Shown: positions 55,003-58,230 of the stretch, piece by piece | Numbering within the stretch: position 1 is the stretch's first letter | How the letters are laid out: the number at the start of each line of letters is the position of its first letter | Origin: Alicyclobacillus sendaiensis NBRC 100866 | GTDB taxonomy: Bacteria > Bacillota > Bacilli > Alicyclobacillales > Alicyclobacillaceae | Direction of reading: 5' to 3' | DNA: 64,000 nucleotides | NCBI RefSeq assembly: GCF_001552675.1 | Contig: NZ_BCRQ01000001.1 | Coordinates: 1 to 64,000, forward strand | Program-made: the position numbers and the translations under genes | The notes under the pieces: model-generated | Told to the model about the DNA's origin: nothing | Seen by the model: only the letters and a program-made list of their open reading frames with translations | Database searches by the model: none

Positions 55003-55377
55003 ATGCCGAAGACGGTGGAGACCAGCCTGGGTAAGGTGCAGATTGCGGAAGAGGTCGTTGCGAAAATTGCAGGCATGGCCGCGCTGGAATGCCCCGGGTT
55101 GGCCGGGATGGCTCCGCGTCGCCAGGTCATGGATCGCCTGAACGAGGTGCTGAGGCGCGAGAACCTGGAGCGCGGGGTGGACGTCCAAATCGGTCCGAAT
55201 GGCGATGACGTTAAGGTCGGTCTGTACATCATCGTGCAGTACGGCGTTAACATCTATGATACGGCAGTGAACGTGCAGGAGCGGGTCGCGGACGCGCTGA
55301 ATCGTTACATCGGCATGGACAACACGCAGATCCACGTCTACGTGCAGGGCGTTGACTTTGGCGACGCCAGCCGCTGA
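55003..55377 (+). CDS. Asp23/Gls24-family envelope stress protein
   Basis: A 124-residue Asp23-domain protein. It has TSLGKVQIAEEVVAKIAGMAALECPGL at the N-terminus, the central VDVQIGPNGDDVKVGLYIIVQYG, and the C-terminal VYVQGVDF. Members are anchored at the membrane by partners such as AmaP and respond to envelope or alkaline stress. The ATG follows AGGAGTGATAGG. Confidence 0.88.
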   Translation: MPKTVETSLGKVQIAEEVVAKIAGMAALECPGLAGMAPRRQVMDRLNEVLRRENLERGVDVQIGPNGDDVKVGLYIIVQYGVNIYDTAVNVQERVADALNRYIGMDNTQIHVYVQGVDFGDASR

Positions 55378-55390
55378 AGCGGGCGTGATG

Positions 55391-55432
55391 ATGGAAAACG
55401 CCGCCGGGCTGTGACTCGGCGGCGTTTTCCAT
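55391..55432. terminator. bidirectional terminator between the two asp23 transcripts
   Basis: A perfect 16-bp stem (55391-55406 with 55417-55432) with A- and T-tracts in its outer arms, between convergent genes. Confidence 0.75.
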
Positions 55433-55446
55433 GCCGTGCGCAGAAC

Positions 55447-55701
55447 TCACATGCCGTCGCGCGGGCGCCTGCGGTTGGCGAGGAACCCCAAGAGGCGCTC
55501 TGCGATGCCGGCCAAGGAACCTTCCTGTTCCCAGATGCGCCCGAACCAATAGAAGAGCGCAATGAGCACCGCCAGTAGCACCATTCTCCAGAATCCTACA
55601 ATCATCCACGCCACCCACACAGCGAAACCCAGCATCAGGCCGTGATATCGATGCGGCAAGTTGATCAGCCATTCCCACGCTTCACGCAAGGTTTCACGCA
55701 C
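55447..55701 (-). CDS. DUF2273-family small membrane protein
   Basis: An 84-residue protein with two hydrophobic segments (about 23-38 and 39-55; GLMLGFAVWVAWMIVGFW). DUF2273 proteins sit with AmaP and Asp23 in many Firmicutes. GTG 55701 is preferred (GGAGTGG upstream) and overlaps the amaP stop by 8 bases. Function unknown, probably part of the Asp23 membrane complex. Confidence 0.78.
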   Translation of the reverse strand: MRETLREAWEWLINLPHRYHGLMLGFAVWVAWMIVGFWRMVLLAVLIALFYWFGRIWEQEGSLAGIAERLLGFLANRRRPRDGM

Positions 55702-56248
55702 CGCTACCACTCCAAACGCGCATGGCTCGGTTGCCATCGCCGAGTTCGGTCACCTGGACGAGGACCCGCTCCACAGGCACGTGCGTTGTCTCTTCGAGAT
55801 ACGATTTCACCGCGTTTTGCGCCTCTTTCGCGACGGCTGCGATGTCGATGTCCGGCAGGACGCGCATGCGCAGTGTCAGAATGAGACCTCCTTGACCCTG
55901 GCGAACGACCGTTTCAAACGAGGACACGCCCCGGAGTTGGGAACCGCGCCGGTTGGCGAGCTGGATGATGGTGTCGTAGGCGATCCGGATGGGGCCGTGA
56001 TCGCCCGTGACCATGACGGCGTCCAGCTTTGGGTCCCGCCGCCGCCGGAAGAACAGGAATCGGATGGCGATGAGGGCGGTGACGCCGCCCACCACCATCG
56101 TCACGACGTTGTACGGATACCGGGTCAACTCCATTTGGGCCCAGCCAATGGGGACGGCTGCGCCGACGAGAGCGACGGCGACGCCCAGGATCAGGGACAC
56201 GATGGACAGAATGAACAGGAGCAGGCGGTCAAACAGGTTCACCTTCAT
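55694..56248 (-). CDS. amaP: alkaline-shock response membrane anchor protein AmaP
   Basis: A 184-residue protein with two N-terminal membrane helices (about 8-30 and 46-66), a basic FRRRRDPK linker, and a soluble domain (80-175, GPIRIAYDTIIQLANRRG). AmaP tethers Asp23 to the membrane. ATG 56248 or GTG 56242. It follows the Asp23-repeat protein by 21 bases. Confidence 0.86.
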   Translation of the reverse strand: MKVNLFDRLLLFILSIVSLILGVAVALVGAAVPIGWAQMELTRYPYNVVTMVVGGVTALIAIRFLFFRRRRDPKLDAVMVTGDHGPIRIAYDTIIQLANRRGSQLRGVSSFETVVRQGQGGLILTLRMRVLPDIDIAAVAKEAQNAVKSYLEETTHVPVERVLVQVTELGDGNRAMRVWSGSGA

Positions 56249-56269
56249 TCCCCCTCATATGGACGAATG

Positions 56270-57010
56270 CTACTCGCGCATTTGGTCCTTTGCCTTGACC
56301 GCCGCGCGATCTGCGGCGTCCTTCGCGGCGTCCGCAGCCCGGCTCGCGACGTCTTTGACGGCTTCCGCACCTTGCTGCGCTGCGTCCTTCGACGCCTCGT
56401 ACGCCGATTGCGCCGTCTGTTTCACCGCTTCAGCGCCCTGCTGAGCTTTTTCCGCCGCTGCGTCCATCACCTGCTGCGCCTTTTCCTTTGCCGTTTCCAT
56501 CGCGCCCGCAGCAGCTTCCTTGGTCGCCTGCGTGGCCGACTGAACTTTGCTCTTCGCCGTGTCGTACCCTTGCTTGACCAGAACCGTGCCCTGCTGGATC
56601 AGATTTGAAACCTTGCTTGGGAAACCGAATCCTTCGCCTTCTTCGTCTTCGTCTCGGAGCGACAAACCGATGACATGCACGTGGACAGCTGCGACGCGCA
56701 GCCCCGTGTATTGCTCGACCGAGGCCTGGACGTGCTCCTGAATCTGTGCCGCGACATCCGGGATTCGATACCCATACCGGAGCACGACCTGAACGGTCAG
56801 CGTGCAGGCGTCATCGGCGAATTCAACTTTCACGCCGCGCGTCAAATTGCGCCGACCGGTGATCTGCTCTGCCAACCCGCTCACCGCGGAACCGGCCATC
56901 TTCGCCACGCCTTCGATTTCAGACATGGCCGCGCCGGCGATGGTCTGAATCACATCCTCCGCAATGTGAATCGTGCCGCTTTGCGCCAGGGTATACTCCA
57001 AGTTGGCCAT
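56270..57010 (-). CDS. Asp23-domain protein with LEA-like repeat tail
   Basis: A 246-residue protein. Residues 1-118 form an Asp23/Gls24 domain (GTIHIAEDVIQTIAGAAMSEIEG, KVEFADDACTLTVQVVLRYG). An acidic linker (DEDEEGEGFGF) leads to residues 138-246, an Ala/Lys/Glu/Gln-rich helical tail of about 11-residue repeats (AKEKAQQVMDAAAEKAQQGAE) like group 3 LEA proteins. The first gene of an asp23-amaP-DUF2273 operon. The ATG follows AAGGAGGAGAAGG. A fused desiccation-type tail is unusual. Confidence 0.85.
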   Translation of the reverse strand: MANLEYTLAQSGTIHIAEDVIQTIAGAAMSEIEGVAKMAGSAVSGLAEQITGRRNLTRGVKVEFADDACTLTVQVVLRYGYRIPDVAAQIQEHVQASVEQYTGLRVAAVHVHVIGLSLRDEDEEGEGFGFPSKVSNLIQQGTVLVKQGYDTAKSKVQSATQATKEAAAGAMETAKEKAQQVMDAAAEKAQQGAEAVKQTAQSAYEASKDAAQQGAEAVKDVASRAADAAKDAADRAAVKAKDQMRE

Positions 57011-57676
57011 TCGCCTTCTCCTCCTTCAGGTGGAATGTGCGATGAGTGTCACTTCCTGCGGTCGCCCTTGTCCGCCGCCGGGGAAGTCGACTCACCACCT
57101 TTCCCGGAGTCTCGTTTGTGTGCGATTGTATCAAAGAATATCTAAAAAGGAAATCCGTATATCAGATCTATTGAATATGTATATCTATACATGTTGTGTA
57201 AATGCATCTTTTCATTGGCGATCTCGGCGCGACCACCGCGGTGTCCTCGAATCCTGTGTGCGAGAGCGTCCTTTGTGGGTCGAAACCTGGAGGTCGTTCG
57301 CGATTGAGAACGTACAACGAGGAATGATCTCGCCGCCGGGTAGGGCTGAGGATGCAAGATGCACGTGGATCAAAGCCTCGCGGGGCCGAGGGCATCTTCT
57401 GAGGTGCCGTCCATCTCGTCGGCGCGCAGGATTCCACGCTGAATGCGATGCCCTACGTGCCTCGGTATGTTGACACCAGCATAACCCAAGGATGGACAAA
57501 GGACAACCTCTGCGTGTCGATGATCGACGACATCCGTCGTCTTCATCACGTCCGTCGCTCGGCGAGCGGCACCCCGGCGGCGCGCGGGAGGTGGATACCG
57601 TACAGGGGTTTCGTATACAATAGGCGTAGCGAGGCACAGTTGATGCCCGGCGGGTCCGGGCGCCGGAGGGAAAGAC
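57011..57676. other. intergenic region with no recognised gene
   Basis: About 665 bases between the divergent asp23 and csoR operons. 57125-57200 is strikingly AT-rich and has a perfect inverted repeat (ATGTATA-TC-TATACAT, 57177-57192). On the minus strand an extended -10 TGATACAAT (57134-57126) could serve the asp23 operon. From 57200 to 57590 frames exist on both strands, but none resembles a protein I know. Confidence 0.6.
57592..57621 (+). promoter_or_regulatory. csoR promoter with CsoR-type operator
   Basis: A weak -35 TGGATA (57592-57597) and -10 TACAAT (57616-57621) enclose TACCGTACAGGGGT (57596-57609). That is a G-tract pseudopalindrome of the TACCC-GGGGTA type that CsoR proteins bind. 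Confidence 0.5.
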
Positions 57677-57991
57677 GTGGACCCATTGCACGCGGACGAA
57701 TCGCATGGACATGCGCACAGCTACGAGCCGATGAAGCCGGATCTGCTTCGCCGCCTGCGGCGAATTGAGGGCCAAGTGCGCGGGCTCCAAAAGATGGTCG
57801 AAGACGGGCGATATTGCATCGATATTCTGGTCCAGATTGCCGCGGTGAAAAGCGCTCTGCACCAAGTCGGGCTGGCTATTCTCGAATCCCACACGCGCGG
57901 ATGCGTCGCCGAGGCGTTGCGCGAGCGGGATCGCGAAGAAGAAAAAGTCGAGGAGCTGATTCAGGTCCTGCGCCAGTTCACCAAGCTGTAA
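57677..57991 (+). CDS. csoR: copper-sensing repressor CsoR
   Basis: A DUF156-family all-helical repressor, 104 residues. Cu(I) ligands Cys47, His72 and Cys76 (C-H-C) mark the CsoR branch; LRRIEGQVRGLQKMVEDGRYC is the family signature. A His-rich N-terminus (His5, 10, 12, 14) is an extra. GTG 57677 follows CCGGAGGGAAAG. copZ follows by 35 bases. Confidence 0.9.
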   Translation: MDPLHADESHGHAHSYEPMKPDLLRRLRRIEGQVRGLQKMVEDGRYCIDILVQIAAVKSALHQVGLAILESHTRGCVAEALRERDREEEKVEELIQVLRQFTKL

Positions 57992-58026
57992 GGGAAGCAA
58001 GAACCGCGGCGAGGGGAGGTGAGCTG

Positions 58027-58230
58027 ATGGCGACGACAACCCTGCGCGTGAAGGGCATGACGTGCGACGGCTGCGTCCGCTCGGTGACGCGCGCGCTGAC
58101 GGCGGTCGAGGGCGTCTCCAGCGTGGACGTGAGCCTTGAGAAGGGGGAGGCTGTCGTCACGCATGCCGATTCCACGCCCGTGACCGCGCTGCGGTCCGCG
58201 GTGGAAGAGGCGGGATACGACGTGGAGTGA
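58027..58230 (+). CDS. copZ: copper chaperone CopZ (HMA domain)
   Basis: A 67-residue heavy-metal-associated domain. The Cu(I)-binding motif is GMTCDGC (Cys13, Cys16). Chaperones of this kind pass copper to CopA, but no CopA ATPase lies in this window. The ATG follows GGGGAGGTGAGC. A terminator follows. Confidence 0.9.
   Translation: MATTTLRVKGMTCDGCVRSVTRALTAVEGVSSVDVSLEKGEAVVTHADSTPVTALRSAVEEAGYDVE

What the first reader, a model, noticed from the sequence alone, without database searches (positions are those of the whole stretch)
55447..57010. Asp23 protein fused to an LEA-like tail, in an AmaP operon
The Asp23 domain is followed by an acidic linker and about 110 residues of 11-mer-like Ala/Lys/Glu/Gln repeats typical of group 3 LEA proteins. 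AmaP and DUF2273 are in the same operon and a solo Asp23 gene is convergent. The tail could make a membrane-tethered desiccation or acid shield, a combination I have not met.
Basis: partly seen in the sequence, partly recalled or inferred. Interest (0 to 1): 0.6.

Follow-up and report, generated by a model that had tools for sequence, protein, structure and literature searches.

The report
Stress protein with LEA-like 11-residue tail
A heat- and acid-loving bacterium carries an extra copy of a membrane-stress operon in which the coat-forming protein Asp23 has gained a tail of ten 11-residue repeats like those of plant drought-protection (LEA) proteins; shorter tails of the same kind turn out to sit, apparently unremarked, on the matching protein of streptococci and enterococci.

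Summary
The 246-aa Asp23 protein ends in exactly ten 11-residue units (residues 137-246). Its periodicity peaks at 98 degrees per residue (3 turns per 11) with nothing at the heptad angle, and 73% of defined positions fit the published group-3 LEA 11-mer pattern (best shuffle 49.5%). AmaP and DUF2273 follow in the same operon; a solo (YloU-type) Asp23 gene is convergent. Pfam LEA_4 does not match.

The operon is an extra copy. The same genome has the ordinary accBC-linked, tail-less set, and a tree places the fusion operon as its duplicate, made in the stem of the Alicyclobacillus acidocaldarius/mali clade. All six genomes with the operon have the tail, under purifying selection. Two tails differ by exactly one 11-mer; four species have a second 11-mer block.

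In 301 Bacilli genomes this long tail occurs only there. However, Asp23/Gls24 proteins of AmaP operons in Lactobacillales (Streptococcus, Enterococcus, Lacticaseibacillus) carry 43-68 aa tails with the same period. So the architecture is recurrent, greatly lengthened here.

Best reading: an AmaP-anchored coat under the membrane bearing conditional amphipathic helices. Whether they act as an LEA-like shield or a right-handed (hendecad) bundle cannot be told from sequence.

The parts
56270..57010 (-). Asp23-tail fusion gene (246 aa)
   Evidence: ORF; PF03780 1e-30; full-length orthologues 76-85% identical in five other genomes of the genus
56663..56980 (-). Asp23 domain (residues 11-116)
   Evidence: PF03780; AF2 model pLDDT about 80-94 over most of it
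56618..56653 (-). acidic linker DEDEEGEGFGFP (residues 120-131)
   Evidence: sequence; AF2 pLDDT below 50 at 122-141
56273..56617 (-). 11-mer tail (residues 132-246); residues 137-246 (56273-56602) are exactly ten 11-residue units
   Evidence: periodicity, LEA motif fit, shuffles; AF2 single helix 132-245; purifying selection
55694..56248 (-). AmaP, two apparent TM segments then an Asp23-like domain (184 aa)
   Evidence: NF033218 66.2 bits, cut-off 55; weak PF03780 at 115-168; TM segments read by eye from the sequence
55447..55737 (-). DUF2273 small membrane protein (96 aa), overlaps AmaP by 44 bp
   Evidence: PF10031 26.6 bits, cut-off 25.4
55003..55377 (+). solo Asp23 (124 aa), YloU-type, convergent; 98-99% identical across the clade
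   Evidence: PF03780 1.7e-29
55391..55432 (.). probable shared bidirectional terminator: perfect 15-bp inverted arms ATGGAAAACGCCGCC ... GGCGGCGTTTTCCAT between the convergent genes
   Evidence: read sequence; + strand also listed
57125..57133 (-). extended -10 (TGATACAAT) of the fusion operon, inside the block TTTGATACAATCGCACACAAAC largely conserved in six species
   Evidence: phylogenetic footprint
57178..57191 (.). operator-like palindrome TGTATANNTATACA upstream of the promoter; TGTAT-N4-ATACA kept in all six species, the only perfect copy in the genome

Best explanation
This is a duplicated and specialised Asp23-AmaP-DUF2273 envelope-stress operon. The Asp23 domain is expected to bind the membrane hairpin protein AmaP and to polymerise into a coat on the inner face of the membrane (known for S. 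aureus Asp23; inferred here). Each subunit then projects, past a short acidic hinge, a tail of ten 11-residue units with the 3-turns-per-11 amphipathic pattern of group-3 LEA proteins. Most likely the tail is a conditional amphipathic helix, hydrated or loose in unstressed cells and ordered into a long helix on stress (drying, heat, acid, osmotic upshift). It would form a dense layer next to the membrane that shields and stabilises the bilayer and neighbouring proteins. Tail length is adjusted in evolution by gain or loss of 11-mers. Shown: architecture, period, motif, conservation, operon, duplication, repeat-number change. Inferred: AmaP binding, polymerisation, conditional folding, protective role.
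For: 11-residue period and absence of heptad period. Fit to the published motif (hydrophobic-hydrophobic-acid/amide-X-hydrophobic-basic-acid/amide-basic-hydrophobic-X-acid/amide; PMC10295645): 0.73 in this species, and each of the six species exceeds its own shuffled maximum. Position profile over six species: K/R at position 6 in 42 of 48 units, acidic/amide at 3 and 7, hydrophobic at 1, 2, 5 and 9. Low hydropathy (GRAVY -0.68), net charge near 0 and an Ala-rich apolar face suit LEA rather than a constitutive lipid binder. Tail dN/dS is 0.06-0.09 in the least saturated pairs. G000 and G002 tails differ by exactly 11 residues. All six operons keep Asp23-AmaP-DUF2273 order. Shorter 11-mer tails occur on Asp23 of Lactobacillales AmaP operons, which sit in stress cassettes with GlsB and CsbD. 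S. aureus Asp23 is anchored by AmaP and forms filaments (PMC6954212). LEA 11-mers alone protect E. coli on drying (PMC8670023).
Against: No match to Pfam LEA_4. Position 8 is Ala more often than the Lys of the motif and position 11 is mixed. AF2 draws one long helix with pLDDT 80-92 in the C-terminal half, compatible with a constitutive helix or bundle. No expression, localisation or stress data for any Alicyclobacillus Asp23 were found. Only one clade of the genus has this operon, so it is not essential for thermoacidophily.
Confidence: 0.45

Rival explanations
1. Hendecad coiled coil. The tails of neighbouring Asp23 subunits (or tail and partner) pack into right-handed, 11/3 coiled-coil bundles that brace the Asp23 polymer or set a spacing under the membrane; the role is scaffolding, not LEA-like protection.
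For: Hydrophobic positions 1, 2, 5, 9 of the 11-mer have cyclic gaps 3-1-3-4, the same as hendecad core positions a, d, e, h (own knowledge of coiled coils), so the sequence pattern is identical; Ala-rich apolar face; Asp23 itself polymerises in S. aureus; AF2 continuous helix.
Against: Few bulky core residues (V/I/L/M/F/Y/W 15%); hydrophilic overall; the copy-number change and interrupting G/S/P linker in four species suggest loose length constraint. AF2 was run on a monomer only.
Confidence: 0.3
2. Membrane-lying amphipathic helix (apolipoprotein-like): the tail binds the bilayer directly, so that the Asp23 coat has a second, lipid-sensing membrane contact besides AmaP.
For: Best Pfam hit of the tail is Apolipoprotein, E 1.9e-4; 11-residue period is that of exchangeable lipid-binding helices (own knowledge); the Lactobacillales tails have more bulky residues and some have higher discriminant values.
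Against: For this protein the mean helical moment is 0.27 and mean D (0.944 moment + 0.33 charge) 0.22, with only 15% of 18-residue windows above 0.68; apolar face mostly Ala; Apolipoprotein score far below its cut-off (21.6 against 90 bits).
Confidence: 0.15
3. Dispensable low-complexity extension: a tandem-repeat expansion with little function, kept because it does no harm.
For: Repeat number varies between close species; the sister copy in the same genome and most other Asp23 proteins lack it.
Against: Purifying selection on the first tail block close to that on the Asp23 domain; present in all six genomes with the operon; register and motif kept through length changes; same kind of tail occurs in Lactobacillales.
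Confidence: 0.07

Closest known systems
Asp23/Gls24-AmaP-DUF2273 envelope-stress operons (S. aureus asp23-amaP; enterococcal/streptococcal gls24 cassettes with GlsB and CsbD)
   Same: Same three protein families side by side; Lactobacillales Asp23 also ends in an 11-residue-period tail.
   Different: Tail here is 110-115 aa (up to 186 aa in relatives) and Ala-rich, against 43-68 aa, more G/V-rich and bulkier there; Asp23 comes first here, not after AmaP and DUF2273; no GlsB or CsbD beside it; the sequence search with the window's tail did not link the two kinds of tail.
accBC-linked YqhY-AmaP-DUF2273-nusB cluster of the same genome
   Same: Parent copy: same gene order; tree puts the fusion operon as its sister within the genus.
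   Different: Parent Asp23 has only a 27-aa C-terminus with no 11-mers; it sits between accC and nusB.
Group 3 LEA proteins (e.g. Deinococcus DosH, eight 11-mers; nematode LEA-1)
   Same: 11-mer repeats, matching motif, hydrophilic, Ala/Lys/Glu/Gln-rich.
   Different: Not matched by Pfam LEA_4; fused to an Asp23 domain in an AmaP operon, so presumably held at the membrane rather than free.
Apolipoprotein A/E-type 11/22-mer lipid-binding helices
   Same: 11-residue amphipathic period; weak Pfam similarity.
   Different: Weak hydrophobic moment and Ala face; below cut-off.

Membership tests
Asp23 family (PF03780) | profile match above curated cut-off | tested here: met
   106.8 bits, cut-off 28
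Asp23-AmaP membrane coat | AmaP encoded in the same operon, above NF033218 cut-off | tested here: met
   66.2 bits, cut-off 55; adjacent in all six species
Asp23-AmaP membrane coat | Asp23 binds AmaP, locates at the membrane and polymerises | not testable with these tools
   known for S. aureus (PMC6954212); needs experiment
Group 3 LEA | tandem 11-mers with 3/11 amphipathic period | tested here: met
Group 3 LEA | published 11-mer motif | tested here: met
   0.73 of defined positions, best shuffle 0.495; positions 8 and 11 only partly
Group 3 LEA | Pfam LEA_4 (PF02987) profile match | tested here: not met
   no match in the genome at E 10; so not filed as an LEA_4 member, only as LEA-like
Group 3 LEA | disordered in water, helical when dry; protects enzymes or membranes | not testable with these tools
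   needs CD and protection assays
Heptad coiled coil | 7-residue hydrophobic period | tested here: not met
   power 1.1 at 103 degrees against about 20 at 98 degrees
Hendecad (right-handed) coiled coil | 11-residue period with a/d/e/h apolar core | tested here: met
   gaps 3-1-3-4 from the position profile
Hendecad (right-handed) coiled coil | oligomeric bundle | not testable with these tools
   needs oligomer measurement or structure
Apolipoprotein (PF01442) | profile match above curated cut-off | tested here: not met
   21.6 bits, cut-off 90

The most novel reading that the evidence does not exclude
A 'tethered LEA coat': in several Bacilli lineages Asp23/Gls24-AmaP polymers hold an array of 11-mer (LEA/hendecad-type) helices against the inner membrane. 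The tail is the stress-active part of the Gls24 system, its length is tuned in 11-residue steps, and Alicyclobacillus has expanded it to about 10 or more units in a dedicated duplicate operon with its own operator.
Probability: 0.3. Interest if true: 0.7.

Novelty: new variant of a known kind. Interest (0 to 1): 0.47.

Why it matters
Asp23/Gls24 proteins are very abundant in several Gram-positive bacteria, yet their molecular function is unclear (PMC5437119, PMC6954212). A recurrent 11-mer helical tail, present or absent by lineage and variable in repeat number, offers a removable part to test: delete or swap the tail and ask whether stress protection, membrane binding or polymerisation changes. 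It would also add a membrane-anchored form to the LEA-like proteins of bacteria. No paper connecting Asp23/Gls24 with LEA or 11-mer tails turned up in the held library.

Tried and rejected
Heptad coiled coil: rejected by the periodogram. LEA_4 membership: no profile match. Horizontal arrival of the operon: not favoured; the tree nests it inside the genus next to the clade's own accBC-linked copy, SH-aLRT/UFBoot 95.5/95. Tail as a mobile domain elsewhere in the genome: no other match, best E 1. Solved structure by sequence: none. Long Asp23 frames in other Bacillota (open frames of 190-417 aa): fetched; the periodicity script lists every Asp23 tail of 30 aa or more and none of these appears, so their length does not lie C-terminal of the domain. 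SigB-type promoter: none obvious; an extended -10 is what is conserved. Fold search: best PDB matches are MamM C-terminal domains (CDF transporter), about 100 columns, which fit the Asp23 domain and give no help for the tail. Plasmid search with the fusion: Asp23 domain only in the rows listed, no tail.

Full report
Setting. The window belongs to an Alicyclobacillus-type genome (2.79 Mb, 153 contigs). The nearest named relative found is Alicyclobacillus mali NBRC 102425 (L034), whose fusion protein is 84% identical. Other genomes are known only by handles; the A. acidocaldarius/mali clade name is inferred from that record and from genome size.

The observation. The fusion gene (56270-57010, -) encodes 246 aa: Asp23 domain 11-116 (E 1e-30), acidic linker 120-131, then a 115-aa tail. 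From residue 137 to the C-terminus the tail is exactly ten 11-residue units. Identity at lag 11 is 0.37 (z 8.2) and at lag 22 is 0.39. The hydrophobicity spectrum peaks at 98-98.5 degrees with power about 20 (shuffle maximum 10) and is flat (1.1) at the heptad angle. The group-3 LEA pattern given in PMC10295645, applied in its best register, fits 73% of the defined positions, against a maximum of 49.5% in 2000 shuffles. The profile over six species has K/R at position 6 in 42 of 48 units, D/E/Q at 3 in 43, D/E/N/Q at 7 in 44, and apolar residues at 1, 2, 5 and 9. AlphaFold2 models residues 132-245 as one helix, with confidence mostly 76-92 in the second half and low confidence at the hinge, 122-141. 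Pfam LEA_4 does not match at any level, so the word 'LEA' rests on motif and period, not on the family profile.

Surroundings. AmaP (66 bits, cut-off 55) and DUF2273 (26.6, cut-off 25.4) follow in the same direction with a 21-bp gap and a 44-bp overlap. The convergent solo Asp23 (55003-55377, +) is 98-99% identical across the clade and 51-58% identical to a single Asp23 of the other genus members; in one of them this lies beside rpe and recG, so it looks like the YloU of this genus. A perfect 15-bp inverted repeat between the convergent stops (55391-55432) can serve both as terminator. Upstream of the fusion, six species share an extended -10 block and a palindrome TGTAT-N4-ATACA at fixed spacing. 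The full TGTATANNTATACA palindrome has no other perfect copy in the genome.

Origin. The genome holds a second complete set, accB-accC-Asp23-AmaP-DUF2273-nusB, whose Asp23 ends 27 aa after the domain (flanking genes named by me from their sequences). This matches the accBC-yqhY context described for B. subtilis (PMC5437119). A tree of joined Asp23 and AmaP puts the six fusion operons together (100/100) as sister to the accBC-linked copies of the same clade, inside the genus (95.5/95). The other nine genus members show only two Asp23 genes, the one next to AmaP and the YloU-type one. So the fusion operon is best read as a duplication in the stem of this clade, followed by faster change (branch 0.71) and gain of the tail.

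Selection and repeat number. In the least saturated pairs dN/dS is 0.05 (domain) and 0.09 (tail) for G013/G009, and 0.03 and 0.06 for G009/G002; most other pairs have saturated dS and are not weighed. The tails of G000 and G002 are 114 and 103 aa from KVSNLI, a difference of one 11-mer. The other four are 184-186 aa, with a second 11-mer block after a G/S/P-rich linker that shifts the register.

Distribution. A tail query finds strong matches in only six of 301 Bacilli genomes, all in this clade; five others give weak matches (E 2e-4 to 8e-4) to unrelated frames that were not pursued. Among 239 distinct Asp23 C-termini read from the loci fetched by then (not a random sample: many were chosen for lying next to AmaP), the median extension is 15 aa. 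Extensions of 50 aa or more occur in only two settings: this clade (119-202 aa) and families f27, f35 and f6. The f27 type is tied to names by plasmid copies in Streptococcus anginosus (95% identical), with more distant ones in Enterococcus and Lacticaseibacillus. There the genes lie in cassettes GlsB-AmaP-DUF2273-Asp23-CsbD or similar. Pooled over 16 such tails the spectrum peaks at 98-99 degrees (5.7; shuffles at most 2.0; heptad angle 2.4), and 15 of 16 beat all 300 shuffles for the LEA motif (there N was allowed along with D/E/Q). Many of these tails are related, so the pooled figure overstates independence, and a few (L131-L133) are not individually periodic. The Streptococcus anginosus and E. 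faecium plasmid proteins repeat the result (that script stopped before the third, L. paracasei, was scored). The Lactobacillales tails are bulkier and G/V-rich, and the search with the window's tail did not find them. Since the Alicyclobacillus parent copy has no tail, the two look like separate gains, but common origin was not tested.

Mechanism. In S. aureus AmaP anchors Asp23 at the inner face of the membrane, Asp23 forms filaments, and loss of either gene induces the cell-wall stress response (PMC6954212). By analogy the fusion protein should form a coat carrying many parallel tails. The tail is hydrophilic (GRAVY -0.68), near neutral, with an Ala-rich apolar face and weak helical moment, which speaks against a constitutive lipid helix and for a conditional one. 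The a/d/e/h spacing of the hendecad coiled coil is the same as the LEA motif (own knowledge of coiled coils), so sequence cannot separate a protective conditional helix from a right-handed bundle. I put the first at 0.45 and the second at 0.30.

Verdict. Real, well conserved, not described in the papers searched, and part of a wider unremarked pattern: a new variant of the known Asp23-AmaP system. The desiccation or acid role is a hypothesis.

Noticed in passing
57178-57191: Palindrome TGTATANNTATACA upstream of the fusion operon; TGTAT-N4-ATACA conserved at fixed spacing in six species; only perfect copy in the genome. Looks like a dedicated operator; regulator unknown.
   Followed up: partly
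55003-55377: Solo Asp23, apparently the YloU of the clade, sits beside the fusion operon here, while in another genus member its relative lies next to recG and rpe (L192). Almost invariant within the clade (98-99%). None of the three Asp23 genes of this genome is at its recG.
   Followed up: partly
L038-L043, L049, L058, L131-L139, L195-L197: Lactobacillales Asp23/Gls24 proteins of AmaP operons end in 43-68 aa tails, most with an 11-residue amphipathic period, and many with a conserved PRVx end; some are on plasmids of Streptococcus anginosus, Enterococcus faecium and Lacticaseibacillus paracasei.
   Followed up: yes
56663-56980: AF2 model of the fusion resembles, over about 100 columns (the Asp23 domain), the C-terminal domain of the magnetosome CDF transporter MamM (Foldseek E 2e-4, TM about 0.7 on the target, 14% identity).
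   Followed up: no
55391-55432: Perfect 15-bp inverted repeat with T/A runs on both sides, a likely bidirectional terminator between the convergent genes.
   Followed up: no
57677-58230: CsoR-type copper repressor (PF02583, 3e-32) followed by a small heavy-metal-binding (CopZ-like, by eye) protein upstream of the fusion operon, in the opposite direction.
   Followed up: no
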